DNA of 64,000 nt from contig NC_135713.1 in assembly GCF_964656455.1 (NCBI RefSeq), positions 188,536,187-188,600,186 on the forward strand. Reading direction: 5' to 3'. Of the stretch, positions 11,889 through 35,880 are shown piece after piece (the first letter of the stretch is position 1; each line of letters opens with the position of its first letter). The translations under genes were made by a program, and so were the position numbers. The DNA is from Halichoerus grypus (taxonomy: Eukaryota; Chordata; Mammalia; Carnivora; Phocidae). The notes under the pieces are model-generated. The model worked only from the letters and a program-made list of their open reading frames with translations, was not told the DNA's origin and did no database searches.

Positions 11889-12272
11889 TCAGCAGGTGGG
11901 CTCACAACAGCTGGGCTGGCAGCAGTAGCAGCAGCAGGCTGGGCGGCAGCAGGACTGTCCGCAGTAGGATGGGCGGCAGCAGGGGGCCTGGGCGTGGTGC
12001 AGCTGGCAGCAGGTTGGGGGCGTGCAGCTCACCACACAGCAGGGGGGCAGGCAGGTGTCCTCCACGCGGCAGTCAGGGCGGCACCACCTGACTCGGCAGC
12101 TCACAGCTCCGTAGCCACCCTCCTGGCCACCACCAGTGCCACAGCTGGTCCCACCGCAGCTGGGCTCGTAGCAGCTGGGCTGGTAGCAGCTGGGCTGGCA
12201 GCAGCTGGAGCCACAGTTCCCACTGGTGGAGCAGGTGGGAAATCCACAGAAGCTAGTGGAGCAGCAGGCCAT
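11889..12272 (-). CDS. KRTAP1: Keratin-associated protein 1 (copy 1)
   Basis: A single-exon gene for a 127-residue high-sulfur hair matrix protein; 33 residues (26%) are cysteine. KRTAP proteins bind and disulfide-cross-link keratin filaments in the hair cortex. Order of parts: the KRTAP1 start MACCSTSFCGFPTCSTSG, CCQPS/CYQPS/CYEPS pentapeptides (residues 24-38), a glycine-rich hinge GTGGGQEGGYGAV (45-57), the family core RVRWCRPDCRVEDTCLPPCC, then CCQLHHAQAPCCRPSYCGQS and a CCCYCCQPSCCEPTC end. The hinge and core are diagnostic of KRTAP1. The pentapeptide block is shorter than in the human KRTAP1-1 I recall. The ATG is chosen by MACC homology and a TATA box about 70 bp upstream. By position it would correspond to the KRTAP1-5 side of the human cluster, but the member number cannot be assigned because all four copies encode the same protein. 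Confidence 0.95.
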   Translation of the reverse strand: MACCSTSFCGFPTCSTSGNCGSSCCQPSCYQPSCYEPSCGGTSCGTGGGQEGGYGAVSCRVRWCRPDCRVEDTCLPPCCVVSCTPPTCCQLHHAQAPCCRPSYCGQSCCRPACCCYCCQPSCCEPTC

Positions 12273-12340
12273 GGTCAGGAGCTGGGTTGAGAGTTGGGTT
12301 GCTTGTAGGTGTTTTGGTGGTAAAGTCTATGTCAGGCAGG

Positions 12341-12352
12341 CCTTTTATATAT
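12341..12352 (-). promoter_or_regulatory. TATA box, KRTAP1 copy 1
   Basis: Minus strand ATATATAAAAGG, about 70 bp before the ATG. A CCAAT motif on the same strand lies at 12431-12435, about 80 bp further upstream, in the context CCAATCAGAGA shared with copy 2. Confidence 0.8.
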
Positions 12353-12439
12353 CTGAGCCAGCTTCTATTTATAAAATTCTTAACATATCTTCCTTGTTTT
12401 TGTTTAAATTTGTTCCTCATTGGTTCTCTGATTGGCGTA

Positions 12440-14169
12440 CATTGAAATACTTATGACCCATTATGAGCAGCAGTTTAGAAATTACTTTGTTTTATAGTTT
12501 CATTTGGACTCCTCATATTGGTCCTTTGCTCTTTGGAATACATTTGTGGTTTTCCATGTTCAAAGAGTCCTTCCATTTTAGTCCACATCAACACCCTCAT
12601 TTTGTAGAGGTGGTTATTTCACGTGACTCTCTGTCTATATGTCTAAGGCTAAGGCTAATTGTGCTCTTAGGTTTAACTATTATTTTTTCCTTCTGGCTTT
12701 ACAGACTGAATTCTGTTGAATTTAGGACAGTGGAACATCCCCTGAATTGAAGAGTACCTTTGTTCATACATAATTAAAAGCTTCCAACTAATTTACTCCA
12801 ACATCAAATCAAATTACTATTATAGTTCCTTTGATTTCGATCAATTTGAAATATGTAAATATTATTCGTATTCTAGGTCAGAAATCTTTTCTTGTGAACC
12901 AAGTGACATAGTTTATATAAAGGTATCTTGCAGAGTGCTTAGCTTCAGGTAGAACTTTAATAAATGCTTACCAAATCTGATTTTGAATGGGTGGAGTAAA
13001 AGACATGATTCATGGACACATGTACCACTTGTAAATGATTTAATAGAACTTACAAGCTGTAGTGCCTCTCATGGAGGAGTCCTTGTTACTGTCAAAAGAG
13101 AGTAGGAAGTGATGAAATATTTTTCTACTGCTGGAATATTTGAACCAAGTCTCAGGGAAAAGCATCTGGGAGTTATGACATTTTGAAGAATGTACTGCCA
13201 TCTACTACTATATTCTTTGAAATGCATTTGATCTAGCATTGTCAATTATGTTTGATCTATCATTGCTACCAATTAAATGATAGAGGTAAGTGCTGGGAGC
13301 TTGTAAATAACTTGAAAAATATTTTTCATAAAGTGTCCTGTATTTTGTCCTATTGTATTTTATATATTGCACTAAAATACTTAATGTGGAATTAAAAAAT
13401 TAAATGGCAAAGGTATTTTTTTTTGTTCTAGATTTATGTTAACTTCCTAAGAGAACATCTTTCAAATTGGGTTGCAAAGTGCAACATACATAGTTTGAGA
13501 TTTCTAATGCATGTGTCTGACCAATGGTGATGGTAGAACTCACAGGGTATCTCCCTGGCTCTTTGTTCTACCCTCATTTAGATCAGAGATACATTTTATA
13601 GGAACTCAAGTAAATGGAGATGAGTGTTGGGAGTTGAAACTTAGAGAGCAATTTGGGGATGAGTGAGAAGAGTATAATAGGCTAAGACATAGGAATTAAA
13701 CCTGAATGCATTTGGAAAATAGTATCTAAAAGATAGTATCTGGTAGATGTTTTAAAATTTACTTAGTAAGTAATATAATCTTTAGTTAGGCACACATGAA
13801 GGAGAACATCTAGTATATAAACTGGAAGGAGATTAAAATGGTAGAGGTAAATCTAGGTAGAAATCCCGTAGATTTGAGCAACCGGAAAATTTTAGCCAAA
13901 AGTGACTTTACTGGTTTAGACCTAATCATAATAGGTTAGAACATTTTAAGTATTTGAATAACTATGAAGATTATTTAATGCATGGAGCATTTTATTAACT
14001 GATGGATTTAAGCATAATGTAATTAGTATTTAATCTTTCTGATTTAGACTTTATGCTTTAGGATTATTATCAAAATGCAAATCCACTCTTCTTGAATTCC
14101 AGCTAAAGATGGACAAGCTTAGAGGTAGAAGGAAGAAAATAACTCAGTTTGCTTTACACATTTAAACAT
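12440..14169. other. Intergenic between KRTAP1 copies 1 and 2
   Basis: AT-rich with no gene and no repeat I can name. The plus-strand frame at 12463-12750 is upstream promoter-side sequence of copy 1 and shows no domain. Confidence 0.4.
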
Positions 14170-14175
14170 TTTATT
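14170..14175 (-). other. Candidate poly(A) signal, KRTAP1 copy 2
   Basis: AATAAA on the minus strand, 333 nt after the stop, in a context ('gtttgcttta...cattttattt') alignable with copy 1. Confidence 0.55.
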
Positions 14176-14507
14176 TGAAATTAAAGGGATATTCGAGGAG
14201 AAAGCAGGTCTGAAAATACGTGGGGATCAAGAGATAGGGAGGAGACCAGAGATGTCACTGAATTGAAGAAATACCCTACCCTGGTGTCTTTTCAAGCAAG
14301 GCAGGATATCTAGATACTCTGATTGATACATGCTTTCAGTGTGCTAATTCAACACATCCAAGAGGGTCCTGTCTAAGACCCATTATTTCTGAGTAGCTTA
14401 GAAACATCATGATACTTAGCATGGGAGTAAAATTGAACCCTTCTTCAGAGATCAGAGCAGTTTGTTTAGTTTCCCCTTTCATTCTTAATTAATCAGCAGC
14501 CTGGCTT

Positions 14508-14891
14508 TCAGCAGGTGGGCTCACAACAGCTGGGCTGGCAGCAGTAGCAGCAGCAGGCTGGGCGGCAGCAGGACTGTCCGCAGTAGGATGGGCGGCAGCA
14601 GGGGGCCTGGGCGTGGTGCAGCTGGCAGCAGGTTGGGGGCGTGCAGCTCACCACACAGCAGGGGGGCAGGCAGGTGTCCTCCACGCGGCAGTCAGGGCGG
14701 CACCACCTGACTCGGCAGCTCACAGCTCCGTAGCCACCCTCCTGGCCACCACCAGTGCCACAGCTGGTCCCACCGCAGCTGGGCTCATAGCAGCTGGGCT
14801 GGTAGCAGCTGGGCTGGCAGCAGCTGGAGCCACAGTTCCCACTGGTGGAGCAGGTGGGAAATCCACAGAAGCTAGTGGAGCAGCAGGCCAT
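14508..14891 (-). CDS. KRTAP1: Keratin-associated protein 1 (copy 2)
   Basis: Encodes exactly the same 127 residues as copy 1. The only nucleotide difference I found within the four coding regions is here: position 14787 makes Tyr35 TAT instead of TAC. Identity with copy 3 runs past the ATG through 'ggtcaggagctgggttgaga' and on into 'aagagaagtttttgag' of the 5' UTR before the two diverge. On the 3' side identity with copies 1 and 3 stops about 15 bp beyond the stop codon ('atcagcagcctggcttt'). The lone difference confirms that this is a separate locus. Intact; start chosen as in copy 1. Confidence 0.95.
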   Translation of the reverse strand: MACCSTSFCGFPTCSTSGNCGSSCCQPSCYQPSCYEPSCGGTSCGTGGGQEGGYGAVSCRVRWCRPDCRVEDTCLPPCCVVSCTPPTCCQLHHAQAPCCRPSYCGQSCCRPACCCYCCQPSCCEPTC

Positions 14892-14963
14892 GGTCAGGAG
14901 CTGGGTTGAGAGTTGGGTTGCTAAGAGAAGTTTTTGAGTTTTGGCTGCACCTTCTACATCTGG

Positions 14964-14974
14964 CCTTTTATATA
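14964..14974 (-). promoter_or_regulatory. TATA box, KRTAP1 copy 2
   Basis: Minus strand TATATAAAAGG, about 75 bp before the ATG. A CCAAT motif (minus strand) lies at 15045-15049, about 70 bp upstream of it. Confidence 0.8.
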
Positions 14975-15049
14975 TTTCCTAGAGCTGCATATTTCCCTGA
15001 CATTCAGTATTGTTCCTTGATACCATTTGCAAAGTAAGTCTCTGATTGG

Positions 15050-15797
15050 CTGATCCCTGAGTTGTTTAGAAAGTTATTAATAGCATTTCAATAGCCTGCT
15101 TTGGTCATTATTCAGTTAAGTCTCATTGTATTTCTTCTTTGCCCTCTGGATCATTATAGAAGCCAATCAGCAACACCTCTTTATGCAAATCACATGACAG
15201 ACTAGAGTTGGGCCAACCCTGGCTTGCTTTGTCATACCTGTCCTTTGTTAACCTGTAGGCCAAGTTTATCTAAATTGAGCATTTTCTTCCTAAGTGGTCA
15301 CTAAATTAAGGATCAGGACTTCATAAATAGAATTTGTTCAGACTTGGAATGACTAACATTAGTGTCATCAAAACATGAGCTATCCAAATTAATCAACATC
15401 CAAAGCACTATGCCTTTCTAAAATCTGTTTGTGCAAGTTACAGGATACTAAGAGCTCTAACCAGTATTTTTGCCTTCAACCATCAGTGTACATATTCCCA
15501 GTTGAAACCCTTAATGACTTTTGCTGATAGATTGTTTTCTGACTCTACTAAATTAAAAATATATGCTAGTAATGAATACATGTTTTAACAAGTCAAACAG
15601 TACACAGGCATATAAAGAAATTTAATATTTTTCCTCTCTTCCCCAAAACACCCATTCCCTCCACAACTAGTACTTCAGAAATAATAAATATTAACAGTTT
15701 GGTGCATATTCTTTGATACCTTTCTCCCTGCTTTTACAGACATAAACCAGCATGGATAAATAGATCATCTAAGTAAAAGTTGGGGTCTATATGTATT
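15050..15797. other. Intergenic, nothing recognised
   Basis: Upstream region of KRTAP1 copy 2; AT-rich, no gene, no repeat identified by eye. Confidence 0.4.
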
Positions 15798-18780
15798 TTT
15801 GAAAAGTTTTAATTAGAGTAAAATACACATAATATGAAATTTACCATCTTAATCATTTAAGTGCACTGTTCACTAGTGTGAAGTACATTCACATTGGTGT
15901 GCAATCTCGAGAACTCTTTTTAACCTCCAAAACTGAAACTCTTTGTCCATTAAAGAACAACCTTTCCATTCTCTCCTCCCTAGGCCTTTGGTAACCACTT
16001 TTTCACTCTTTGTTTAGATGAATTTGACCAACCTAGGTGCCTCATATAAGTGAAATTATCCAGTATGTCTTTTTAATGAATGGCTTATTTCACTTAGCAT
16101 ACTGTTCTCAAGATTCATCCATGTCATAGAATGTATGAGAATTTCCTTCCTTTTTAAGGCTGAATAATACTCCTTTGTATGTATATACCACAATTTGTTT
16201 ATCCGTTAATCCGTTGATGGACACTTGGGCTGCTTCCAACCTTTTGGCTATTGTGATTAATGCCCATACTACTCAAAGCAATTTACAGATTTTAAGTTTT
16301 TTGGGTAACTGCCATACTGTTTCCCATAGTGGCTGCTCATTTCCACCAACAGTACACAAGGGTTCCAATTTCTCCACATCCTTGCAAGCACTTTTTGGGT
16401 TTTTTGAGATTAGACATTCTAGTGGGTATGAGGTTGTATGTCATTGTGGTTTTGATTTGCATTTTTGTAATGACTGATGATATGAAACATTTTTTAATAT
16501 GCTTGTTGGCTGTTTATTTATCTTCTTTGGAGAAGTGTCCATTCATGTCCTTTGCCCAATTTTTAATTGTTGTTGATTGTAGGAGTTCTTCATATATTCT
16601 AGATATTAGCTTCTTATCAGATATATGATTTGCAAATCTTTCTCCCTTTCTGTAGATTGAATTTTCATTTCGTTCATTGGTCCTTTGCAAAATTTTTAAT
16701 TTTGATATAGTTCAATTTATGTGTTTTCTACTTTTGTTGTATATGCTTTTGGTGTCATATCCAAGAAATCACTGCCAAATCCAATGTCATGAACCTTTCC
16801 CCCTGTGTTTTCTTCTAAGAGTTTTACAGTTTTAGCTCCTAACTTTAGGTTTTTTATCCATCTTCAATTAATTTTTGTGTGTGGTGTAATGTAAGGGTCC
16901 ACCTTCATTCTTTTGCATGTGGATATCCGCTTTTCCCAGCCCCATTTGTTGAAAAGACTGTGCTTCCCCATTGAATGGTTTTGACGCTCTTGTTGAAAAT
17001 TATTTGATTGTACATATAAAGGTTTCTTCCTGGGCTCTTTCTTCTATTCCATTTGTCTATATGACTGCCTTTATGCCAGTACCATGCTGTTTTGAATACT
17101 GTAGCTTTGTAATATAGTTTGAAGTCAGGAAGTATGATGCCTCCAGCTTTGTTCCTCTTTCTCAAGATTGATTTGGCTATTCAGAGTCTTTTGTGGCTCC
17201 ATACAGATTTTTGGATGTTTCTTTTTTCTATTTCTGTGAAAAATACCATTGAAATTTTGATAGGGATTGCATTGAATCTGTAAATTGCTTTGAGTAGTAT
17301 GGGCATTTTAACAGTACTGATACTCCTAATTCATGAGCATGGAATACTTTTCCATTTATTTGTGGCTTCTTTAATTTCTTTCATCAATGTCTTCTAGTTT
17401 TCAGTACACAGATCTTTCATCTCCTTGGTTAAATTTATTCCTAAGTATTTTATTCTTTTTGATGCTATTATAAATGGAATTGTTTTCTTAATTTCTCTCT
17501 TTTTAAAATTTATCCTTATTTATTATTTTTTTAAGAGAGAGAGCAGCGGGGAGAGGCAGAGGGAGAGGGAGAGAGAAAGAATCTTAAGCAGGCTCCATGC
17601 CCAGTGCAGAGCCTGATGTGGGGCTTGATCTCACTACCCTGAAATCATGACCTGAGCTGAAATCAAGAGTCTGGCACTTAACTAACTGAGCCACCCAGCA
17701 CCCCTTAATTTCTCTTTCTGATAGATTGTTGTTAGTATATAGAAATGCAGCTGATTTGTATATTGATTTTTGTATCCTACAACTCTACTGAATTTGTTTA
17801 GTTTAACCATTTTCTTATTCTTTTTTTTTGTGGAGTCCTTAGGATTTTCTATATATCATATCATGTCATCTGCAAGTAGGGACAGTTTTACTTTTTTCTT
17901 TCTTATTTGGATGCCGTTTACTTCTTTTTCTTGTCTAATTGCTCTACCTGGGACTTCTAGTACTATGATAAAGAGAATAGTTAAAAATGGGCACCCTTCT
18001 CTTTTTCCTAATCTTAGGGGAAAAGCTTTCAGTCTTTTACCACTGAGTATGATGTTAGTGTGGGCTTTCATATTTTGCTTTTATTAGGCTGACGTAGTTT
18101 CCTTTTATTCCTAGTTTGTTGAGTGTTTTGTTTTCTGTTTTTTTTTTTTATTATGAAAGAGTGTTGAATTTCATCAAATTCTTTTTCTCCATCTATTGAG
18201 ATAACCATGTGTTTTCCCCCTTTTATTCTGTTATGTGATATATTACATTGATTTTTTTCCTGTTGAACCATCCTTGCATTCTAGGATAATATCCCATTAG
18301 GTCATGATGTGTAACCTTTTTAATGTACTGTTGAATTCTGTTTGATAGTATTTTGTTGAATATTGCATCAGTATTCATCAGGGATATTGGTTTCTAGTTT
18401 TCTCTTCCGTAGTGTCTTTGGCTTTGGTATCAGGATAATGCTAGCCTCATAAAGTGAGTTTGGAAGTGTTCCCTCCTCATTAATTTGTTGGAAGAATTAG
18501 AGGATGATTGATTTTAACTTTTCTTTGAATGTTTGGTAGGATTTACCAGTGAAGCTTCTGGTACTGGGATTTTATTTGTTGGGAGGTGTTGTTTTTTTTT
18601 TTTTAATTACTGATTTAATCTCCTTGCTAATTATAAATCTGTTCAGATTTTCTATTTCTTCCTGATTCAGTTTTGATAGGTTATGTGATTCTAGGAATTT
18701 ATCCATTTTATCTAGGTTATCTAATTTTTGGCCTATCCCATATGTGTTAGTCATTCTTTTAAAAACTATGCAGTATTCCA
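15798..18780 (-). mobile_element. Ancient L1, 3-kb 3' portion
   Basis: Read on the minus strand this is an old L1 3' UTR ('aaaatacacataatatgaaa' on the plus strand), followed upstream by decayed ORF2. Recognisable ORF2 pieces include 16905-17165 ('[20 protein letters not shown]', the region after the RT domain) and 17856-18071 (ends '[10 protein letters not shown]', the RT active-site strand). Many stops and frameshifts make it non-functional. A SINE at 17499-17703 interrupts it. Confidence 0.9.
17499..17703 (-). mobile_element. CAN-SINE, minus strand, with TSD
   Basis: T-rich start, GA-rich middle, and tRNA-like end 'actgagccacccagcacccc'. TSD cttaatttctct at 17487-17498 and 17704-17715. 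It is more diverged than the SINEs at 3406 or 6127. Confidence 0.9.
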
Positions 18781-19603: not shown

Positions 19604-19944
19604 GCTCCCTCCAGTTCTTTTTTTAAAAGATTATTTAAAAAATTTTTAAAAATTTTTTTATTTTTAAAAATTTTTTGATTATGTTGTATTAGTCACCATA
19701 CAGTACATTATTAATTTTTGATGTGGTGATCCACGATTCATTGTTTTCGTGTAACACCCAGTGCTTCATGCAGTACGTGCCCTTCTTAATACCCATCACT
19801 GGGCTAACCTATCCCCCCACCCCCCTCCCCTGTAAAACCTTCAGTTTGTTTCTCAGAGTCCATAGTCTCTCATGGTTCATCTCTTCTTCCGATTACCCCC
19901 CTTCATTTTTCCCTTCCTTCTTTTAATGTCCTCCATGCTATTCC

Positions 19945-22900
19945 TTATGTTCCACACATAAGTGAAACCATATGATAATTGACTTTCTCTGCTTGACTTA
20001 TTTGACTTAGCATAATCTTCTCCAGTCCCATCCATGCTGATGTAAAAGTTGGATATTCATCCTTTCTGGTGGCTGAGTAATATTCCATTGTATATACGGA
20101 CCACATCTTCTTTATCCATTCATCTGTTGAAGGGCATCTCGGCTCTTTCCACAGTTTGGCTATTGCTGACATGGCTGCTATGAACATTGGGGTGCATATG
20201 GCCCTTCTTTTCACTACATCTGTGTCTTTGGGGTAAATACCCAGGAGTGCAATTGCTGGGTCATAGGGTAGCTCTATTTTTAACTTTTTGAGGAACCTCC
20301 ACACTGTTTTCCAAAGCGGCTGTACCAACTTGCATTCCCACCAACAGTGTAAGAGGGTTCCTCTTTCTCCACAACTTCTCCAACATTTGTTGTTTCTTGT
20401 CCTGTCCATTTTTGCCATTCTAACTGGTGTAAGGTGGTATCTTAATGTGGTTTTGATTTGAATTTCCCTGATGACTAATGATGATGAACATTTTTTCATG
20501 TGTCTGTTAGCCATTTGTATGTCTTCTTCAGAGAAGTGTCTGTTCATGTCTTCTGCCCATTTTTTGACTTGATTATTTGTTTTTTTGGGCGTTGAGTTTG
20601 AGAAGTTCTTTATCGATCTTGGATACCAGCCCTTTATCTGTAGTGTCATTTGCAAATAGCTTCTCCCATTCCGTGGGTTGCCTCTTTGTTTTGTTGACTG
20701 TTTCCTTTGCTGTGCAGAAGCTTTTTAATCTTGATGAAGTCCCAAACGTTCATTTTTGCTTTTGTTTCACTAGCTTTTGGAGATGTATCTTGAAAGAAGT
20801 TGCTGTGGGTGATGTCAAAGAGGTTACTGCCTATGTTCTCCTCTAGGATTTTGATGGATTTCTGTCTCACATTGAGGTCTTTCATCCATTTTGAATTTAT
20901 CATTGTGTATGGTGTTAGAGAATGGTCGAGTGTCATTCTGCATGTGGCTGTCCAATTTTCCCAGCACAATTTATTGAAGAGACTTTTTTCCATTGCATTT
21001 TTTTCCCTGCTTTGTTGAAGATTATTTGACCATAGAGTTGAGGGTCCATATCTGGGCTCTCTATTCTGTTCCATTGGTCTATATGTCTGTTTTTGTGCCA
21101 GTACTGTGCTGTCTTGGTGATCACTGCTTTGTAATATAGCTTGAAAGCGGGCAACATGATGCCCCCAACTTTGTTTTTCTTTTTCAACATTTCCTTGGCG
21201 ATTCGGGGTCTCTTCTGATTCCATACAAATTTTAGGATTGTTTGTTCCAGCACTTTGAAAAATGTCATTGGAATTTTGATTGCGATGGCATTGAAGGTGT
21301 AGATTGCTCTGGGTAGCATAGACATTTTAACAATGTTTATTCTTCCGATCCATGAGCATGGAATGTTTTTCCATCTTTTTGTGTCTTCTTCAACTTCTTT
21401 CATGAGTGTTCTGTAGTTCCTAGAGTATAGATCCTTTACCTCTTTGGTTAGGTTTATTCCGAGGTATCTTATGGTTTTTGGTGGTATTGTAAATGGAATC
21501 ATTTCTCTAATTTCTCTTTCTATAGCTGCATTGTTAGTGTATAAGAAAGCAACTGATTTCTGTGCATTGATTTTGTATCCTGCCACATTACTGAATTGCT
21601 GTATGAGTTCTAGTAATTTGGGGGTGGAGTCTTTCGGGTTTTCCACATAAAGTATCATGTCATCTGCAAAAAGAGAGAGTTTGACTTCTTCTTTGCCAAT
21701 TTGAATACCTTTTATTTCTTTCTGTTGTCTGATTGCTGTTGCTAGGACTTCTAGTACTATGTTGAACAATAGTGGCAAGAGTGGACATCCTTGATGTGTT
21801 CCTGATCTTAAGGGAAAGGCTCTCAGCTTTTCCCCATTGAGGATGATATTCGCTGTGGGTTTTTCATAGATGGATTTTATGAAATTGAGGAATATTCCCT
21901 CTGTCCCTACACTCTGAAGAGTTTTAATCAGGAAAGGATGCTGTATTTTGTCAAATGCTTTTTCTGCATCAATTGAGAGGACCATATGGTTCTTCTCCCT
22001 CCTCTTAATGTGTTCTATCACATTGATTGATTTGCGAATGTTGAACCACCCTTGCATCCCGGGGATAAATCCCACTTGGTTGTGGTGGATGATCCTTTTA
22101 ATGTATTGTTGGATCCTATTAGCTAGGATTTTGTTGAGGATTTTGGAATCCATATTCATCAGGGATATCGGTCTGAAATTCTCCTTTTTGATGGGGTCTT
22201 TGCCTGGTTTGGGGATTAAGGTAATGCTGGCCTCACAGAATGAGTCTGGAAACTTTCCTTCTGTTTCTATTTTTTGAAACAGCTTCAGGAGAATAGGTAT
22301 TATTTCTTCTTTGAATGTTTGGTAGAATTCCCCGGGGAATCCATCAGGCCCTGGACTCTTGTTTTTTGGGAGGTTTTTGATCACTGCTTCAATCTCGTTA
22401 CTGGTTATTGTCCTATTCAGGTTGTCAATTTCTTCCTGTTTCAGTCTTGGCAGCTTATTGGTTTCCAGGAAGGCATCCATTTCATCCAGATTGCTCAGTT
22501 TATAGGCATATAGCTGTTGATAGTAATTTCTAATAATTGTTTCTATTTCCTTGGTGTTAGTCGTGATCTCTCCCCTTTCATTCATAATTATATTAATTTG
22601 GGTCCTTTCTTTTTTCTTTTGGATAAGTCTGGCCAGTGGTTTATCGATCTTATTAATTCTTTCAAAGAACCAGCTTCTGGTTTCGTTGATCTGATCTACT
22701 GTGTTTCTGGTTTCTAATTCATTGATCTCTGCTCTAATCTTAATTATTTTTCTTCTAATGCGTGGCTTAGGCATCGTTTGTTGCTTTTTCTCTAGTTCTT
22801 TAAGGTGTAGAGTTAGTTGGTGAATTCGGGATTTTTCTTTTTTTTTTTTTTTGAGTGAGGCTTTGATGGCTATGTATTTCCCCCTTAGGACCGCCTTTGC

Positions 22901-23755
22901 AGTATCCCATAGGTTTTGGACCGATATGTTTTCGTTCTCATTGGTTTCCATGAATTGTTTAAGTTCTCCTTTGATTTCCTGGTTGACCCAAACATTCATG
23001 AGCAGAGTGGTTTTTAGCTTCCAAGTATTTGAATTTCTTCCAAATTTTTTCTTGTGATTGAGTTCCAGTTTTAAAGCATTATGGTCTGAGAATATGCAGG
23101 GAATAATCTCAATCTTTTGGTATCAGTTGAGACCTGATTTGTGACCCAGTATGTGGTCTATTCTGGTGAAAGTTCCATGTGGGCTCGAGAAGAATGAGTA
23201 TTCTGTTGTTTTAGGGTGGAATGTTTTGTATATATCTATGAGGTCCATCTGGTCCAGTGTGTCATTCAAAGCTCTTGGTTCTTTGCTGATTTTCTGCTTA
23301 GATGATCTGTGTATTGCTGAGAGTGGAGTATTGAGGTCTCCTACGATTAACGTATTGTTATCAATATGACTTTTTATTTTGTTTAACGGTTGGCTTATGT
23401 AGATGGCTGCTCCCATGTTGGGGGTGTAGATATTTACAATTGTTAGATCTTCTTGTTGGATAGACCCTTTAAGAATGATATAGTCTCCTTGTGTGTCTCT
23501 AACTACAGTCTTTAGTTTAAAATCTAATTTGTTTGATATAAGAATTGCTACCCCAGCTTTCTTTTGAGGTCTGCTGGCATGGAAGATGGATCTCCATCCC
23601 TTCACTTTCAGTCTGGATGTATCTTTAGGTTCAAAATGAGTCTCTTGTAGACAGCATCTGGATGGGTCCTGTCTTTTTATCCAATCTGCAACCCTGTGCC
23701 ATTTTATGGGAGCATTTAGGCCGTTCATGTGAGAGTGATTATTGAAAAATACGAA
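19945..23755 (-). pseudogene. L1 ORF2 (endonuclease-RT), broken
   Basis: ORF2 encodes the nicking endonuclease and reverse transcriptase of L1. The endonuclease lies in 23123-23728 (motifs 'CCLQETHFEPKDTSRLK', 'IVGDLNTPLS', 'RIDHILGHKS'). One in-frame stop at 23123-23125 separates it from a 688-codon open stretch (20933-22999) that holds the RT domain with the FADD active site at 21659-21670. Around 20950-21000 the frame shifts to the segment ending at 20646. A second shift leads to the C-terminal frame 19945-20655, which carries a cysteine-rich '[14 protein letters not shown]' segment. The catalytic motifs look intact, but at least one nonsense change and two frameshifts disable the protein. 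Confidence 0.9.
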
Positions 23756-23859
23756 TTTATTGTCATCATGTTGCCTGTGAAGACCTTGTTTTTATAGATC
23801 GTCTCTGTAAATTTCTGTTGTATATCACTCTTGGGGTCTTTCTCCTTTTATAGAACCCC

Positions 23860-24741
23860 CCTTAATATTTCTTGCAGGGCCGGCTTAGTGGTCACATATT
23901 CTTTCGGTTTCTGCTGCTCTTGGAAGCTCTGCTGCATCTCTCCATCCATTCTAAATGATAGCCTTGCCGGATAAAGTATTCTTGGCTGCATGTTCTTCTC
24001 GTTTAGTACTCTGAATATGTCTTGCCAGGCCTTTCTGGTTTACCAGGTCGCTGTGGATGGGTCTGACGTTATTCTGATATTCCTCCCTCTGTACGTAAGG
24101 AATCTCTTCCCCCTAACTGCCCTTAAGATGGTTTCCTTGGTTCTAAGATTTGTGAGTTTTACTATTACATGCTGGGGTGTTGGCCTGTTTTCCTTGATCT
24201 TGGGAGGAGTCCTCTCTGCCTCTAGGACACGAGTGTTTGTTTCATTCCCCAGATTAGGGAAGTTCTCAGCTACAGTTTGCTCAAATATATCTTCTAGTCC
24301 TCTCTCTCTCTCCACCCCCTCCAGGATTCCAATAATTCTGACATTGGAATGCTTCATGGTGTCACTTACTTCTCTGATTCTATTTTCATGGATTCTGAGT
24401 TGTTTTACCCTGGCCTCCTCTTTTCCCTTTTTATCTATTAAATTGTCTTCCAGATCACTAATTCATTCTTCTGCCTCACTTACCCTAGCTCTTAGATTAT
24501 CTAGATTAGATTGGATCTCAATGATAGCATTTTTAAGTTCTGCCAATTCAGCTTTCATTTCTGCCCTTAGAGACTCTCTGTTGCCATTAATTGATTTCTC
24601 CATTCTAGCTATTGTCTTCACAATTGCTAGCCTGAATTCCATCTCTGACATCTTGGTTATATCTGAATCCATTTGTAAATCTGTGGCATAAGTCATAATC
24701 TCTGAGTTGTTCCTATTTTGGGGGTTCCTCCTCCTAGTCAT
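23860..24741 (-). pseudogene. L1 ORF1 (RNA-binding protein), broken
   Basis: ORF1 encodes the trimeric RNA chaperone of L1. 24463-24741 carries the N-terminal part and a coiled-coil-like segment ('AELKNAIIEIQSNLDNLRAR'). 24040-24357 carries the central RNA-recognition part ('NVRIIGILEGVERERG'). Both pieces are in the same frame and separated by a premature stop at 24463-24465; another stop lies at about 24040. The end of the gene near 23860 is approximate. Confidence 0.85.
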
Positions 24742-25588
24742 TCTGTTGATGGGTGGTTGAGGGAATGTATAGAGTCCAAATTATTGACCACAACCCAAGC
24801 AAGATGCACCTGTTTTCTAGGGACCTTAGGGTTGCTGGCCTCTTGTTTTCCCAGCCTGTCTTCTGGGGGAGGGGCCTGCCATGCTGTTACTCAGGCAACC
24901 CTGTCTGGGCAGAGTTGCCCTGCCCCCTGTGGCAGGGGGATGGGCTCAGTGGGAACCGGTTTTTTGGGGCTTTTGTTCTCTGGTGGCTTTCCTTGGCGGC
25001 TTTCCACGTCTCTTCCGAGAGTCAGAGCAGAAGAGACCGTTTCCAACCCTCTGCCTCAGAGCAGAGACATCGCAGTCTGTTCTTCAGTGAGCTCTCCAGG
25101 CCACACTATCTCCATTTCTGTCCGTGCAGTGTCCTGGGTTGCATGCCCCTCCACAGCTCTCCCAGTCCTCGCCTCCAGGTCTGGGCTTGTCTCTGTCCTT
25201 TGTGCTTCTAAAACCGCCAGCCACCCCAAGTTCCCACACACGGCCCCACTGCTCTGGTTTCCATCTAAAGTCCTTTCCCGCCACTACAGGTCTGCGAGTC
25301 TGTGCCCCGTCCCCAGCGCGGGAGACTATCGCTCACTGGCGGTGTCAGATCCCCACAGCCAGACTCCCTCCTACTGCCGTTTATCCTCCAATATCTGCTT
25401 GCGGAATCACGCTCCCTGCTTCGTACCTCGAAACCAACCGCCTGTGATATTCTGTTTTGTAGAGATCCAGATCTTCTTACATCTCAGGCTGATTTCGTGG
25501 GTGTTTAGAGTGGTCTGGTAGATATCCAACTCAATTCCAGGGACCGGTTGGAATAAGGTCCCCTACTCCTCTGCCGTCTTTTCTCTCT

Positions 25589-25811
25589 AAGATTTATTTA
25601 TTTATTTTAGAGGGAGAAGTGAGGGTGGGGGGAGAGAGAGACACCGACCGACCAAGCAGGGGGAGGGGCAGAAGGAGAAGGAGAAAGAGTCCTAAGCAGA
25701 CTCTGAGCTGAGCCCGGAGCCTGATGCAGGGCTCAATCCCATGACTCCAAGATCACAACCTGAGCTGAAACTAAGTCGGTCACTCAACTGACTGAGCCAC
25801 CCAGGAGCCCC
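25589..25811 (-). mobile_element. CAN-SINE fused to the L1 5' end
   Basis: 'aagatttatttatttatttt', a GA-rich middle, and the end 'gactgagccacccaggagcc'. Its A-rich tail faces the L1 start with only ~8 bp between (25581-25588). Its head abuts the outer TSD of the L1 after 2 bp. No own TSD was found: the left flank ttctctct and right flank tggctccc do not match convincingly. Confidence 0.85.
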
Positions 25812-25828
25812 TGGCTCCCTCCAGTTCT

Positions 25829-26546
25829 AAGTCCAGGAAACCACAAATTAATCCTGATCCTTCCAAAAACTACCCGGATTTATGAAGCATTTCTTGATGC
25901 TCTGTTTAGATATGTATAAGTTCACTGTATATTATTTTTTCTTTCATTGTGTATTATGTATAAATGCATGTGTATGTATAATAAATATATGTATTTCTAA
26001 GTGAAAATTTTAAACCAAGTTAGTTATGTTATTATCTTCACTTTCATTTTAGAAACGGGGGAAAAAAGTAGAATTCTCCATCTAACCAAAAGCATATTTC
26101 CTCAGAGAGGCTTCCCCAACTTGTAGCTCTCTTGCTTTACTCTGCAACGCTATGTATAAATGGAAGAGTATAATATATTAGCATATGTTCCCACAGTTTG
26201 AAGATGGCCTGAAAGAGCATTCCTCTAACAGACTTGAAAAAAATACATCATATTCTGGCTCTGGATTCAGAGTTGCTTCCTGACTTCTATAACTTTCTGG
26301 TTATGAAAGCACTTTGTGAGGTCAGGATATGGAAATAGAGCCTGTGCCACTTCTGAGGCCCTGTATAACTGCCTTTGCTGTATTTTTTTATGGGGATTAA
26401 CCTCCATTAGATGTGGTCAAATTGCCTAGAAAGCAGTGTGGGACAACAAAAACAGACTAAAATCTTTTGTGACTTTTTATGAAACACATATCACGAACAC
26501 ACTCAGTGAAGAAAAAGAGATATGTTTGCTGCACCAATAGATATAA
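25829..26546. other. Intergenic, nothing recognised
   Basis: AT-rich; no gene or repeat identified by eye. The rightmost part (from about 26780) is 3' UTR of KRTAP1 copy 3. Confidence 0.4.
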
Positions 26547-26552
26547 TTTAAT
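26547..26552 (-). other. Candidate poly(A) signal, KRTAP1 copy 3
   Basis: ATTAAA variant on the minus strand, 376 nt after the stop, at the position aligned with the AATAAA of copy 1. Confidence 0.4.
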
Positions 26553-26927
26553 AGACCGTGGTATATTATTCCCCTTTCATAAAAAGTGCAGTTTGCAAAA
26601 TGGTGGTGTGTAGGAGGTGAACATAGAAGGACAGATGATTCTGCAGCATCGGTGGCACTGAGTCACAGAGTAGATTAAAATGCGTGCTGAAGGCAATTTC
26701 TCGAGTTAAATTTGTATTTTGGCAACCTCACTGGGGAGATCGAGGTCTTTCCAGAAGTGAATGGAATCAGATAGGTCTGTGAGGCCCAAATATTTGGTAT
26801 CCCCCACAACAAAAACCAAATAAAAGTTCAAGAATTTGTTAGTGCTCCATGGATGATGGAAGAGCTAATTAGTTCATGAATTGATTTGGAAGCTGAAACT
26901 TCAAATCCAAAATCAGCAGCCTGGCTT

Positions 26928-27311
26928 TCAGCAGGTGGGCTCACAACAGCTGGGCTGGCAGCAGTAGCAGCAGCAGGCTGGGCGGCAGCAGGACTGTCCG
27001 CAGTAGGATGGGCGGCAGCAGGGGGCCTGGGCGTGGTGCAGCTGGCAGCAGGTTGGGGGCGTGCAGCTCACCACACAGCAGGGGGGCAGGCAGGTGTCCT
27101 CCACGCGGCAGTCAGGGCGGCACCACCTGACTCGGCAGCTCACAGCTCCGTAGCCACCCTCCTGGCCACCACCAGTGCCACAGCTGGTCCCACCGCAGCT
27201 GGGCTCGTAGCAGCTGGGCTGGTAGCAGCTGGGCTGGCAGCAGCTGGAGCCACAGTTCCCACTGGTGGAGCAGGTGGGAAATCCACAGAAGCTAGTGGAG
27301 CAGCAGGCCAT
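26928..27311 (-). CDS. KRTAP1: Keratin-associated protein 1 (copy 3)
   Basis: The 127-residue protein is identical to copies 1, 2 and 4. The open frame runs 22 codons further upstream (to 27377), but the MACC start at 27309-27311 is chosen. It matches the family, and the upstream extension would begin only about 7 bp from the TATA box. Outside the coding region the 3' UTR aligns to copy 1 with many differences ('tggtatcccccacaacaaa' against 'tggtagcccccataacaaa'), showing that the locus is an old duplicate whose coding part has been kept identical. Intact. Confidence 0.95.
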   Translation of the reverse strand: MACCSTSFCGFPTCSTSGNCGSSCCQPSCYQPSCYEPSCGGTSCGTGGGQEGGYGAVSCRVRWCRPDCRVEDTCLPPCCVVSCTPPTCCQLHHAQAPCCRPSYCGQSCCRPACCCYCCQPSCCEPTC

Positions 27312-27383
27312 GGTCAGGAGCTGGGTTGAGAGTTGGGTTGCTAAGAGAAGTTTTTGAGTTTTGGTGGTGACTTCCATGTTGGG

Positions 27384-27392
27384 CCTTTTATA
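27384..27392 (-). promoter_or_regulatory. TATA box, KRTAP1 copy 3
   Basis: Minus strand TATAAAAGG, about 75 bp before the ATG. The CCAAT motif of copies 1 and 2 is replaced: the plus strand reads ctgaataat where they have ctgattgg, near 27465-27469. Confidence 0.75.
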
Positions 27393-27479
27393 AGCCTTGA
27401 CTAGCTATGATTTACATAATTCTCAAAATCTCTTCCTTGTTTGTGTATAAATAATCTGTCTCTGAATAATAATTGCCCT

Positions 27480-29156
27480 ATTCCTGAGTTATTTGTTCAG
27501 CCTCTGAAAGCCTTTATAAGTTCATTTTATTTGGTCTTCAATTAAGATTCTTTACCACAGTTAAGTAGTTATTGGCATTCATTTGGTACATAACCCATAA
27601 TCCCCCATATTTGTTAAAATTTGGTCATTGCCCTATGAATAATTGATGCCTCACCTTTAAGGAGTGTCAGTATTACTCAGTGTTGACCCTGATAATCGGG
27701 CCCTTGGGTCTCACGTGACAGTTTAATTCCCAGCATCATGGCTCCAGTGTCAGCCACTGCCCCTTCATCGTTTTCATCTTCAATTTGACTATGAAGCAAA
27801 GTGATCCAGCTGGCCAGAAAGGGATGCTTTTTTGGGGGACTGAGAAATGTGGATGAATTGTTACTGATCACAATTTCTGGAGCACTTAGGTGCTTAAATG
27901 GTTCTGACTGTTTTACATTTATCAGTTCATTTAATTTTTACTGCAGTCCTATGAGCCATGCCTATAGCTACTCCCATCATCCATATAAGGAAACCAAGCC
28001 TCAAACAGATTTACATCTCTTGCCCAGGTTCACAGCAGCAAGTGGTGAATCTGAAATTTGAACCCACATCATCTGACTCCAGCGTAAACTCTTTCAACCA
28101 CTACAGTCAGTACTCTGTTTTCCATGTAAGCAATTGTTCTAGAGAAAATCAAAGGGTAAAAGAAAGATGTAAAAATTTGTCCACTTTCAAACTTTTTTAG
28201 AGTCAAGGGAAGAAAGGCAGAGCTTTGGATGAGTAATAACACTATTTATTAGGACTTCTCTGGAAATTTTTATTTTTTTTTAACTCCATAATCACACTTC
28301 GAGAAAATCTCAAGTGCTAAAAAGGTTAATCCATTTGACTTGTGACTTCATCTAAACTTTGATATTAGGATGTCTTCTAGATTTAAATGTCCTTAACTGC
28401 ATAAAAATCATACCCAGTGTATTAACACTGGAGCATGTGACACACTATGGTGTGTTAGATCTGCTGTATGCAGTTTACTGTACATATTAGAAACTAGTCC
28501 AGCTCGCTGAAAGTTAATATAATTTGAATGAAACAACTGATGAGGATGAAGATGAAGCTTTTGTGTAGGTACAATGAAAGGTGACCTGGCCCTCGTTGAG
28601 TATGGATTCTATTATAGGGAAATGGAAGTTAAAATACAGAGTTTGAACCAGAATACCAGGTATTAGTTCTGCTTCTCCAGAAATGACAGCTTTGAGTTAA
28701 GATCATAACTCTTTCCAAATCAGAATTAAGACATTTTCAAATCCCATGTCAAATGTGAGTTAAAAGGTATGTGAATTTTTTGCTTCCTTTCCTTAAGCAA
28801 ATCTCTGTCACAGATTCTTTGATTAGCTGATTTATTTTTACTGTGGGTGTTTGGAATATGCAGATTTATCACCATTACAGTCTCAGGAGCTATTTAATTC
28901 ATATTTAAATTCAGTAGAATATTTGATTTTGATAAATGGTAAATAATAAAAACATTTATCTCCCCTTGCAAAAAATTCTTATGTTTCAAGAGTTGAAATA
29001 CCTCCTCATAAGGGCACTGGAGATAGTAGTGTTGTCTGTTAGTTCTCCATTTCTGGCTTTTCTGGTGCGGCACTGTTTACAGCATCTCCCTCGGTGCAAA
29101 ACTTAACTCAGTTTTCATGTTGCTCGTCTTTAGTTGCCCTCAGAGAATTATTAGGT
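27480..29156. other. Intergenic; contains a MIR
   Basis: No gene was recognised. A MIR lies at 27870-28108. The open frames at 27677-28200 overlap the MIR or are short and featureless. Confidence 0.45.
27870..28108 (+). repeat. MIR
   Basis: 'atcagttcatttaattttta', 'aaggaaaccaagcctcaaac', 'tttgaacccacatcatctga' in MIR order, plus strand. Confidence 0.75.
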
Positions 29157-29550
29157 GTGTTAGCCAGAGTTCTCCAGAGAAACAGAACCAGTAAGATATA
29201 TATAAATAGGTAGAAAGAGATTTATTGTGAGGGATTGGCTCACACAAATATGGAGCCTAAGAAGTCCCACCAGGAGCACTGAAGTCTGAGGGCAGGAGAA
29301 GATGAATGTCCCAGCTTGAGCCATAGAACAGTTCACCTTTTCTGCCTTTTTGTTCTATTTGGGGCTCAATGGTTTGGATGATGCCCACTCACATTGGTGA
29401 AGGCAATGTTCTTTACTCATTCTACAGATTCATATGCTAATTCCTTCTGTAAACACCTTCACAGACACACCCAGGAATAATGTTTTACCAGCTATCTAGG
29501 GATCCCTTTAAGCAGTCAAGTTGATACATAAGATTAAACCATCACATAAG
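29157..29550 (-). repeat. Medium-reiteration repeat, family uncertain
   Basis: Ends in 'gttctccagagaaacagaac' on plus and reads on minus as 'gatggtttaatcttatg...caacttgactg'. A second copy in the opposite orientation is at 57491-58046, and the two align over their ends. This is a common mammalian interspersed repeat whose exact family I cannot name. Confidence 0.65.
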
Positions 29551-30573
29551 GTGTGACACTTAAAATTTGAGAATTCTATTTTTCTGCCACAGATTAATCT
29601 GAATATTCCCTTATCTTCCCTAAATAAGTCAAGAAAATAAAATTATTTCCTCTTACCACTTAAATCCAATTCTTCTTGATTGGTTCTAATACAAATAGAG
29701 TAAGAAGTTTTAATCATTTGTGATGTTAGATTTTCTGTCCTGTTTATATGCTGGATATCCCCATCTGTGGTCTTCTTTGAGAAAAGAATGCCAGTAACTT
29801 TACATTTAAAACTATTTTATTACTATGCGTATTCTCTTTGGTTTTCATTACTTCGTTTAAGCGATGGGGCCCAGACCAAATAGTACCACAAGAAGAAAGG
29901 ATGTGTTTGTCTCTTATTATTCCATGTTTGCCTTCTGTTTATAGATACTAATATTTGAGTTATTTTTCTTTAAGAGATCAGTGTTCTGGGTTTTTTACTG
30001 TAAATTTTGGGGTGTCTCTCAGTTCCTTAAAATCCATTTTAAATAGTTCTCTAATTCAGTTGCCTCTGCCTTTCTTAGGTTCCTGAGTGATAAGATGTGG
30101 TTGATATACCAACCAGTTGAATATCCTCAACTTTTTATTCTAAATCAAGTAATAAGATCTTCTCTCTGAATGTCAACCTGGCTCTTTGGTGCTTCCAAGC
30201 TGAAGCCTTCTAAGTCAAAGGTGCATCCAACCTAAGTCTTCCTAATCTGTTGGAAGATAAGAGAGTAGTATATGAGGGACATAGAGTGTTGAACATGTTT
30301 TAGACGCATTGTGTATAAGAATGGGCATAGTGAATGTCAGTATCATGCTTGTTTAAATCCATTCCTGTAATGTATATTTATTTTCTACTTAACAATACAT
30401 GAAACAACTGTATAGATGTTTTAGAAACATTAGTTGAAATTCCTTTTCATCATTTTCCAAAGTATATTTTGAGGAATACTAGTGTTACAGGATGTTAAGT
30501 CAGTAATAAATAAATAAATAAATTCCCTGACTAAATCAGTTTGGGAGTAATAGTTATAGAGCTTTCTTTAATA
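29551..30573. other. Intergenic; short (AAAT)n tract
   Basis: No gene was seen. A small aataaataaataaataaa tract lies near 30506-30524. Confidence 0.4.
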
Positions 30574-30587
30574 TTCTAATGTGCTTT

Positions 30588-30754
30588 GTTTTTAATTTTT
30601 TTATTTTTTAAAAATTTATTATGTTATTTTAGTCACCATACAATACATCATTAGTTTTTGATATGGTGATCCACATTCCATTGTTTTCGTATAACACCCA
30701 GTGCTCCATGCAGTATGTGCCCTCCTTAATACCCATCACCGGGCTAAGCAATCC
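30588..30754 (-). mobile_element. Short L1 3'-end insertion with perfect TSD
   Basis: Only ~167 bp of L1 3' UTR ('gtcaccatacaatacatcat', 'aacacccagtgctccatgc'), with the A-tail at the low coordinate. The perfect 14-bp TSD ttctaatgtgcttt is at 30574-30587 and 30755-30768. Confidence 0.95.
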
Positions 30755-30768
30755 TTCTAATGTGCTTT

Positions 30769-31325
30769 ATAAACCTTCAAGATGGTGAAAACGCATGCAA
30801 CATTATTTGACCATTGAATACTTTTTCCCTGTTGGGCATCTAAGACTCTAGTTGTCAGTGCATCACCTGTTTAGGAAATAATCCATCCTATGCCTGGGAG
30901 GGATGTTGTAAGCAATGAAAGTCAGTTCTCTTATTTTCCAGGCTTTCTAGACTGGTGCCCAGGGAGGCGAAGGGCTTTGCTCAAGAATCCATGGATTCTT
31001 AGTTACAAAGTGGGAACAAGAACTTGGGATGCCTTTACATCTTATGCTAGTACTTTGAAATCTTGTGTTTACTCTCTTTCCAACTATGTATTACTCTTTT
31101 ATACCCTCGATAATTGAAAGAATTGTACACAGAATCCTATATGAATGAAATTAATAGATTTGGTAACACCTCAAGAAGCTAAATGACATAAAAATTCCTT
31201 TTTTGTAAAATCATCTTCTGGAACACCTAGCCCATCAGTTTGCACATGTGAGGACCTTGGGAAATAATTTCTAAATACTGATAGATTCTTTTAATCATAG
31301 ATTTTGGCTGCAGAATATTGGACCA
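30769..31325. other. Intergenic, nothing recognised
   Basis: The frame at 30890-31117 has no recognisable domain. A weak MIR-like run ('agggaggcgaagggctttgc') is possible at 30955-31000. Confidence 0.35.
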
Positions 31326-31331
31326 TTTAAT
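31326..31331 (-). other. Candidate distal poly(A) signal, KRTAP1 copy 4
   Basis: ATTAAA on the minus strand in a context ('ggctgcagaatattgg') aligned with the poly(A) region of copy 3. A second, nearer AATAAA is at 31506-31511, 266 nt after the stop; copies 1 and 3 do not have it. Confidence 0.4.
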
Positions 31332-31505
31332 GGTAAAACAAAGGAAAACCATCTTTTAAAGACCTTTATAAAAGGACAAAAATTAGGAAAAACCATACTG
31401 CCATATCACAGTTATTGAGATTTTGAAAAATCCAAGTACCCCAATAGCAATAACAAATTCCAAATAAAAGCTCCAACAATGACTTCATCACTGAAGAATA
31501 AAAAT

Positions 31506-31511
31506 TTTATT
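31506..31511 (-). other. Candidate proximal poly(A) signal, KRTAP1 copy 4
   Basis: AATAAA on the minus strand within 'aaaattttattaaatc'. If used, the 3' UTR would be about 270 nt instead of about 450. Confidence 0.45.
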
Positions 31512-31776
31512 AAATCCCAAATCCAATGAGCTGTTGAACTATTTCAGATGATATTTATAGTAAAGTTTTACATATTCCTCTTAACTTTGTAGGACTTCTA
31601 TTCATATCCAGGTTTATGAAATATTTTTGGTCATCAATTATAAATTCACATTTTAGGAAAATTATGTAGCCATGTGACAAGAGTTTGCAAGCTGGATTAT
31701 GGGTATTAGCGCTCAGAAGTTTGTTGGGACTCTACATTGGCTCGTGCCAGTTTCTCAGGATTCCTTTAGAAGGCTT

Positions 31777-32160
31777 TCAGCAGGTGGGCTCACAACAGCT
31801 GGGCTGGCAGCAGTAGCAGCAGCAGGCTGGGCGGCAGCAGGACTGTCCGCAGTAGGATGGGCGGCAGCAGGGGGCCTGGGCGTGGTGCAGCTGGCAGCAG
31901 GTTGGGGGCGTGCAGCTCACCACACAGCAGGGGGGCAGGCAGGTGTCCTCCACGCGGCAGTCAGGGCGGCACCACCTGACTCGGCAGCTCACAGCTCCGT
32001 AGCCACCCTCCTGGCCACCACCAGTGCCACAGCTGGTCCCACCGCAGCTGGGCTCGTAGCAGCTGGGCTGGTAGCAGCTGGGCTGGCAGCAGCTGGAGCC
32101 ACAGTTCCCACTGGTGGAGCAGGTGGGAAATCCACAGAAGCTAGTGGAGCAGCAGGCCAT
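31777..32160 (-). CDS. KRTAP1: Keratin-associated protein 1 (copy 4)
   Basis: Protein identical to the other three KRTAP1 copies. The frame is open for 22 further codons (to 32226), but the MACC start at 32158-32160 is the family start. Identity with the other copies ends only ~8 bp past the stop (shared 'ggctttcagcaggtgggc', then divergent), and on the 5' side after 'gagttgggttgctt'. This is the sharpest coding-limited identity of the set. It is the last KRTAP1 before the KRTAP2 group, the place held by KRTAP1-1 in human. Confidence 0.95.
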   Translation of the reverse strand: MACCSTSFCGFPTCSTSGNCGSSCCQPSCYQPSCYEPSCGGTSCGTGGGQEGGYGAVSCRVRWCRPDCRVEDTCLPPCCVVSCTPPTCCQLHHAQAPCCRPSYCGQSCCRPACCCYCCQPSCCEPTC

Positions 32161-35796: not shown

Positions 35797-35880
35797 GGTG
35801 ATGTGCGGGGTTGGTTTGGGTTGGACTGGTGAGAGGATTTGGGTGTTGTCAGGTGTGAATGTCTTTGTCGGGCTCTGGGG

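What the first reader, a model, noticed from the sequence alone, without database searches (positions are those of the whole stretch)
11889..32160. Four KRTAP1 genes with identical proteins but diverged flanks
The coding regions at 11889, 14508, 26928 and 31777 encode the same 127 residues. Comparing by eye I found one synonymous base difference (14787). Identity falls away within about 10-30 bp outside the ends: ~8 bp past the stop in copy 4, ~30 bp before the ATG in copies 1 and 4. The aligned 3' UTRs of copies 1 and 3 differ at many positions, so the loci are old duplicates. This is the signature of repeated gene conversion, or very strong constraint at silent sites as well, confined to the coding exon.
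Basis: partly seen in the sequence, partly recalled or inferred. Interest (0 to 1): 0.8.

Follow-up and report, generated by a model that had tools for sequence, protein, structure and literature searches.

The report
Hair-protein genes kept identical by conversion
Four copies of one hair-protein gene, and four of its neighbour, are almost letter-for-letter identical inside the gene but unrecognisable as copies a short way outside it, best explained by the copies repeatedly overwriting one another, a process already known for this gene family.

Summary
Four KRTAP1 coding regions on the minus strand (384 bp each) differ at one base in all: 14787, silent, TAC/TAT in copy 2. Exact identity stops 31-53 bp before the ATG and 5-18 bp after the stop, depending on the pair. 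At 200-1000 bp, flank identity is 39-47%, like unrelated controls at 41-47%. Nearer in, five of six pairs keep some upstream similarity, and only pair 1-3 a diverged 3' flank. Not in the finding: four KRTAP2 genes next door behave the same way, with 0-2 differences of 390 per pair, a shared TATA box and 5' UTR, and a 3' match ending 0-8 bp past the stop.

Recurrent non-allelic gene conversion is the best explanation. Constraint alone is disfavoured: at 63 of 126 KRTAP1 residues fewer than 90% of relatives agree (16 compared). Shifting relations among copies fit conversion, but that signal is modest. Recent tandem duplication fails on the flanks.

Concerted evolution of KRTAPs by gene conversion, with four KRTAP1 and four KRTAP2 genes in eight mammals including dog, is published (PMC2528016, PMC4180150; passages read). 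This is a clean instance of a known phenomenon. Assembly artefact was not tested.

The parts
11889..12272 (-). KRTAP1 copy 1, 127 aa, uninterrupted ORF
   Evidence: ORF; Pfam PF01500 Keratin_B2 E=5.5e-47; relatives include KAP1-3-like and KAP1-5-like
14508..14891 (-). KRTAP1 copy 2, 127 aa; carries the only CDS difference of the set (14787, silent)
26928..27311 (-). KRTAP1 copy 3, 127 aa; the mechanical ORF extends to 27377 through an in-frame ATG at -66, probably too near the TATA box (-81) to lie in the mRNA (inference)
31777..32160 (-). KRTAP1 copy 4, 127 aa
12273..12303 (-). 31 bp upstream of the ATG of copy 1, identical in all four KRTAP1 copies (proximal 5' UTR, inferred)
   Evidence: alignment
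27312..27364 (-). 53 bp upstream of copy 3, identical to copy 2; the outer part (-34 to -53) is shared with copy 2 only: inferred footprint of a 2/3 conversion tract
35407..35796 (-). KRTAP2 copy 1, 129 aa
   Evidence: Pfam PF01500 E=3.5e-17; relatives include KAP2-1-like
43548..43937 (-). KRTAP2 copy 2, CDS identical to copy 1
48181..48570 (-). KRTAP2 copy 3, one missense difference (Asp3Gly, window 48563)
53239..53628 (-). KRTAP2 copy 4, one silent difference (window 53254)
35797..35894 (-). 98 bp upstream of KRTAP2 copy 1, identical to copy 4 and, but for one base (-10), to copies 2 and 3; includes the TATA box at -94

Best explanation
Eight hair-keratin-associated genes with uninterrupted reading frames form two sets of four old tandem duplicates. 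Within each set, non-allelic (interlocus) gene conversion has repeatedly copied the gene from one locus onto another, most recently perhaps one to two million years ago. Flanking DNA, rarely converted and little selected, has diverged beyond recognition, so conversion now acts between islands of about 420-530 bp of homology. Purifying selection on the coding sequence and proximal 5' region stops the island from shrinking further, so its edges sit in the 5' UTR/TATA region and at the stop codon. SHOWN: near-identity inside, no detectable homology further out, pair-specific tract ends, shifting relations among copies (modest signal). INFERRED: that conversion rather than another exchange did it, its dates, and the role of selection at the edges.
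For: CDS differences are 0-1 of 384 (KRTAP1) and 0-2 of 390 (KRTAP2) per pair. Flanks at 200-1000 bp have 39.2-47.4% aligned identity over 24 comparisons (12 pairs, two sides), against 41.3-46.9% in six unrelated control pairs. In no pair of either family do fewer than 5 of 100 resamplings reach the observed score in the outer flank windows. If silent sites had diverged like the 3' UTR of copies 1 and 3 (p=0.415), zero differences at about 82 silent sites would have probability about 8e-20. The protein is not frozen: at 63 of 126 residues fewer than 90% of relatives share the window's residue, and identity to the 16 relatives compared runs from 84/121 to 84/94 of aligned residues, with 9 to 79 gap columns (2 of the 18 relatives, P0018 and P0019, were left out of the alignment). 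KRTAP1 copies 2 and 3 are identical to -53, but at -60 to -120 copy 3 is nearest copy 1 (38/54, against 31/55 with copy 2 and 34/54 with copy 4), and only copies 1 and 3 share a recognisable 3' UTR. In KRTAP2, 8 of 8 informative upstream columns group 1+4 against 2+3, while past the stop copies 1 and 2 share 8 bp. Silent-site GC is high inside (GC4 0.74 in KRTAP1, 0.91-0.93 in KRTAP2) against 0.34-0.45 GC in 1-kb flanks, as GC-biased conversion predicts.
Against: GENECONV was not run, and no orthologous mammalian DNA was available, so silent divergence within and between species was not compared. The incongruence is modest: in KRTAP1 the five informative columns nearest the gene all say 14|23, but so do 10 of 17 overall (chance about 0.04); beyond -120 copy 3 has no clear nearest copy (29/48, 25/40, 29/48); in KRTAP2 six of the eight informative columns lie at -130 or beyond, where the alignment is poor. 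The single KRTAP4-like gene is also GC-rich (GC4 0.86), so GC is weak evidence on its own. PMC2528016 (passage read) states that conversion in the past 5 million years has not obscured human-chimpanzee orthology, which argues against very frequent conversion in primates. No read-level support was available.
Confidence: 0.89

Rival explanations
1. Extreme constraint at amino-acid and silent sites has kept four independently evolving copies identical, with no exchange between them.
For: Identity ends close to functional boundaries, above all at the stop codon. Rhinoceros and deer database proteins seem to carry a similar stretch just before the ATG, read as protein (judged by eye), so the proximal 5' region is probably constrained.
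Against: At 63 of 126 KRTAP1 residues fewer than 90% of the relatives compared share the window's residue, and lengths differ. Shared non-coding stretches differ in length by pair.
Confidence: 0.03
2. The identity is an assembly or consensus artefact: one copy's sequence was placed or polished into all four loci.
For: A repeat of 384-530 bp exceeds common short-read lengths. Read data and the window's own assembly could not be examined: searches did not complete.
Against: No N in the window. Single-base differences survive at 14787, 48563, 53254 and at -10 of KRTAP2. Tract ends differ by pair. Published work reports concerted evolution of these subfamilies in other mammals (PMC2528016, PMC4180150; passages read). 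Collapse by an assembler would itself need near-identity (inference).
Confidence: 0.06
3. Recent tandem duplication or repeated unequal crossing-over made the copies alike.
For: Tandem order on the same strand. PMC2528016 states that GeneConv cannot separate conversion from unequal crossing-over (passage read). Copy number does vary in the wider survey: 16 of 22 mammals have four KRTAP1 and 12 of 22 have four KRTAP2; panda has 3 and 5 (PMC4180150, Table 1).
Against: Flanks are unrelated at 200-1000 bp. The matches between spacers listed (60 bp or more) are scattered and often inverted; I judged them by eye to be mostly SINE and LINE-1 copies, with a few unclassified short ones. Unequal crossing-over would make hybrid spacers. 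Eight mammals all have four and four in PMC2528016 Table 1.
Confidence: 0.02
4. Conversion templated by cDNA rather than by the sister gene's DNA.
For: The coding regions are uninterrupted, so a cDNA donor would leave no splice mark.
Against: The KRTAP2 block includes the TATA box at -94 (exact to -98 for pair 1-4 and -106 for pair 2-3; the other four pairs differ at -10 but stay at 55/60 or better to -120), which should not be transcribed, while the 3' UTR, which a cDNA would carry, is not homogenised.
Confidence: 0.01

Closest known systems
Concerted evolution of high-cysteine KRTAP subfamilies by gene conversion (PMC2528016, passages read; PMC4180150, passages read)
   Same: Same gene subfamilies, same copy number in eight mammals including dog (4 KRTAP1 and 4 KRTAP2, Table 1 of PMC2528016), high GC, low silent divergence between paralogues, conversion inferred.
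   Different: Those passages treat coding sequences; I saw no description there of identity against unalignable flanks. In the 22-mammal survey copy number varies (panda 3 and 5).
KAP1 and KAP2 families of sheep and human (PMC4929423, passages read)
   Same: Four KAP1 members in sheep and human; over 97% identity between human KAP2 members.
   Different: Sheep KAP1 members differ in decapeptide repeat number, whereas here all four have the same length and protein sequence. The four KRTAP2 CDSs here differ by at most two bases per pair.
Short-segment exchange in sheep KRTAP1-2 and KRTAP1-4 (PMC8657448, passages read)
   Same: Gene conversion proposed for KRTAP1 genes.
   Different: There it is invoked to create sequence diversity; here it removes diversity among loci.

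Membership tests
KRTAP1 and KRTAP2 (keratin-associated protein genes) | Keratin_B2 domain in a cysteine-rich protein with an uninterrupted reading frame | tested here: met
   PF01500 at 5.5e-47 and 3.5e-17, above the curated cut-off (one copy of each set tested); ORFs
KRTAP1 and KRTAP2 (keratin-associated protein genes) | Closest relatives belong to the named subfamily | tested here: met
   KRTAP1: 18 relatives; names include KAP1-3-like, KAP1-5 and B2A to B2D, but six are labelled KAP9-3-like and four are uncharacterised or hypothetical. KRTAP2: 11 relatives, six named KAP2-1, 2-2 or 2-3
Concerted evolution by gene conversion | Paralogues in one genome far more alike than their flanking DNA | tested here: met
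Concerted evolution by gene conversion | Incongruent relations among copies along the sequence | tested here: inconclusive
   KRTAP1: 2=3 at -34 to -53, 1-3 nearest at -60 to -120 and in the 3' UTR, no order beyond -120; chance of the near block about 0.04. KRTAP2: 14|23 upstream, 1-2 past the stop on 8 bp only
Concerted evolution by gene conversion | Paralogues within a species more alike than orthologues between close species, at silent sites | tested here: inconclusive
   Protein level only: best relative 77% identical over 89% of the query, no carnivoran among the 18 hits; orthologous DNA not available
Concerted evolution by gene conversion | Copies confirmed by single reads anchored in flanks | not testable with these tools
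   No read data; own-assembly search not answered

The most novel reading that the evidence does not exclude
Conversion here works edge to edge on islands of only about 420-530 bp of homology with no detectable homology further out, in two neighbouring families at once, and homogenises right up to the stop codon. That would mean that mammalian interlocus conversion needs no flanking homology and that selection alone draws the borders of the exchanged unit.
Probability: 0.35. Interest if true: 0.5.

Novelty: new member of a known kind. Interest (0 to 1): 0.3.

Why it matters
It is a clean natural example of how conversion and selection together may set the borders of a homogenised unit: eight genes in about 42 kb, with sharp ends and unrelated outer flanks. 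It could be used to measure the smallest homology that conversion needs in a mammal. It also warns that these paralogues can hardly be told apart by reads or primers inside the coding region, and that gene trees of KRTAP1/2 may not give orthology. The process itself is already published for this family.

Tried and rejected
Considered and rejected: recent tandem duplication (flanks unrelated; spacer matches scattered); cDNA-templated conversion (the KRTAP2 block includes the TATA box and excludes the 3' UTR); constraint alone. A megablast of copy 1's CDS against the phage records gave no match, as expected. A profile-based protein search returned the same 18 relatives and no carnivoran. Powell et al. 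1983 on sheep B2 genes, which I recall as reporting a conserved stretch just before the ATG, is not held, so that recollection was not checked. Paper searches were made; the hits were seen as a listing only. Passages of PMC10463633 on GC content of tandem arrays were read and not used. The near-flank and outer-flank tests used 100 first-order Markov resamplings per pair, not exact dinucleotide shuffles. Row 1 of alignment A1 lacks the first Met because the reference was cut three bases short. Times use assumed rates of 1.5-3e-9 per site per year (recalled, no call) and a star tree.
Full report
Observation. All four KRTAP1 coding regions lie at the stated coordinates, on the minus strand. Among the six pairs, three differ at 0 of 384 bases and three at 1 of 384; the only variable site is window 14787 in copy 2, TAC/TAT, silent. 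Upstream of the ATG, exact identity runs 31 bp for four pairs, 33 bp for pair 1-4 and 53 bp for pair 2-3; past the stop it runs 5 bp for the three pairs with copy 4 and 17-18 bp for the other three.

Flanks. In pairwise MAFFT alignments of 2-kb flanks, identity at 200-1000 bp is 39.2-47.4% over 24 comparisons (12 pairs of both families, two sides), the level of six unrelated control pairs (41.3-46.9%). Local alignment scores of the outer flanks (150-900 bp upstream, 220-1000 bp downstream) do not stand out: 7 to 85 of 100 resamplings reach the observed score in the KRTAP1 pairs and 5 to 74 in the KRTAP2 pairs. Nearer in (about 55-205 bp upstream), five of six KRTAP1 pairs exceed nearly all resamplings (0 or 1 of 100 reach the score) and pair 2-4 does not (18 of 100). 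At 20-220 bp downstream only pair 1-3 of KRTAP1 stands out (0 of 100); the other five have 52 to 98 of 100. The 3' UTRs of copies 1 and 3 differ at 41.5% of 142 aligned columns, with one well kept patch, so part of it may be constrained and an age from it is rough.

The neighbouring family. Four KRTAP2 genes (35407, 43548, 48181, 53239) show the same thing. CDS differences of 390 are 0 (copies 1-2), 2 (copies 3-4) and 1 in the other four pairs: one missense (Asp3Gly, copy 3) and one silent (copy 4). Pair 1-4 matches exactly to -98 and pair 2-3 to -106; the other four pairs differ at -10. In the -60 to -120 columns all six pairs have 55/60 to 58/60; the TATA box is at -94. Past the stop the match is 8 bp for copies 1-2 and 0-2 bp for the other five pairs. 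At 20-220 bp downstream 4 to 90 of 100 resamplings reach the observed score, so no pair clearly stands out, the lowest being pair 2-4.

Identity of the genes. One KRTAP1 and one KRTAP2 protein were scanned and both hit Pfam Keratin_B2. The names rest on database names of relatives: 18 for KRTAP1, down to platypus, of which six are labelled KAP9-3-like and four are uncharacterised or hypothetical, and 11 for KRTAP2. The window carries 8 matches with at most 3 mismatches to a SINE head that I recall as carnivoran (none in 100 shuffles).

Why conversion. First, the contrast of inside and outside: at the divergence of the copy 1/copy 3 3' UTR, zero silent differences at about 82 sites would have a probability near 8e-20. 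Second, the protein is free to change: of 126 window residues, 63 are shared by fewer than 90% of relatives (columns with at least 8 letters) and 37 are shared by all (columns with at least 12 letters). Identity to the 16 relatives compared runs from 84/121 to 84/94 of aligned residues. P0018 and P0019, the two weakest of the 18 hits, were left out of that alignment. Third, relations among copies change along the sequence. In KRTAP1, five informative columns from -32 to -52 all group 2 with 3, while seven of the eight informative columns from -64 to -136 group otherwise; over the whole stretch the counts are 10 for 14|23, 4 for 13|24 and 3 for 12|34. This is only a modest signal: five near columns all 14|23 given 10 of 17 has a chance of about 0.04. 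Four further 14|23 columns lie at -149 to -180, in poorly aligned sequence, and beyond -120 copy 3 has no clear nearest copy (29/48, 25/40, 29/48). In KRTAP2 all 8 informative columns say 14|23, six of them at -130 or beyond in poor alignment, against a 1-2 match of 8 bp past the stop. Fourth, GC4 is 0.74 (KRTAP1) and 0.91-0.93 (KRTAP2) against 0.34-0.45 GC in 1-kb flanks; the single KRTAP4-like gene is at 0.86, so this line is weak on its own.

Age. PMC2528016 (passages read, Table 1) lists four KRTAP1 and four KRTAP2 genes in human, chimpanzee, macaque, mouse, rat, dog, opossum and platypus; bracketed counts, presumably pseudogenes, are one in platypus KRTAP1 and one in macaque KRTAP2. PMC4180150 (Table 1) is less uniform: 16 of 22 mammals have four KRTAP1 and 12 of 22 have four KRTAP2, with panda at 3 and 5 and dolphin at 0 and 0. 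If the loci are shared, the duplications are very old, which would explain unalignable flanks; this is inference. With assumed rates of 1.5-3e-9 and a star tree, the last homogenisation of KRTAP1 is about 1-2 million years old, with an upper limit of about 6-11. PMC2528016 states that conversion in the past 5 million years has not obscured human-chimpanzee orthology, so the tempo may differ between lineages.

Where the borders lie. The 3' border sits within 0-18 bp of the stop in all 12 pairs. The 5' border lies near the gene in KRTAP1 and just beyond the TATA box in KRTAP2. N-terminal extensions of rhinoceros and deer database proteins (P0009, P0013) look like read-through of a TATA box and of a stretch resembling the KRTAP1 pre-ATG sequence, which suggests that this stretch is conserved between orders; I judged that by eye and inferred DNA from protein. 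The likely rule is that flanks drift, conversion holds the shared island together, and selection stops the island from shrinking into functional sequence.

What is known. PMC2528016 and PMC4180150 (passages read) report concerted evolution and gene conversion in high-cysteine KRTAP subfamilies, the latter stating for subfamilies 1, 2 and 3 that high conversion rates maintain homogeneity. PMC8657448 (passages read) proposes conversion for sheep KRTAP1-2 and KRTAP1-4. In sheep the KAP1 members differ in repeat number (PMC4929423, passages read); here they do not. In five paper searches and the passages read I saw no description of non-homologous flanks beside identical KRTAP coding regions, but most subscription papers are not held.

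Limits. No reads, no orthologous DNA, no GENECONV run, and the own-assembly search did not complete. An assembly artefact is therefore unlikely but not excluded.

Noticed in passing
35407-35796, 43548-43937, 48181-48570, 53239-53628 (-): Four KRTAP2 genes with the same pattern as the KRTAP1 set: near-identical CDS and promoter, 3' flanks that stop matching 0-8 bp past the stop.
   Followed up: yes
60730-61380 (-): A 216-aa cysteine-rich gene with internal repeats (Keratin_B2_2, 8 stretches), probably KRTAP4 (name recalled).
   Followed up: partly
26928-27377 (-): KRTAP1 copy 3 has an in-frame ATG at -66, close to the TATA box at -81; gene predictors may add 22 residues wrongly.
   Followed up: no
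P0009 and P0013 (proteins): KRTAP1-like database proteins of rhinoceros and deer have N-terminal extensions that look like translated promoter and 5' UTR, so their start codons are probably misannotated.
   Followed up: partly
19945-24741 (-) and 16289-18718: LINE-1-like ORFs (judged by eye) in the long spacer between KRTAP1 copies 2 and 3, plus a second stretch about 69-70% similar to part of it.
   Followed up: no
33208-33346 and 33976-34115: Two direct copies of about 140 bp, 80% alike, between KRTAP1 copy 4 and KRTAP2 copy 1; not identified.
   Followed up: no
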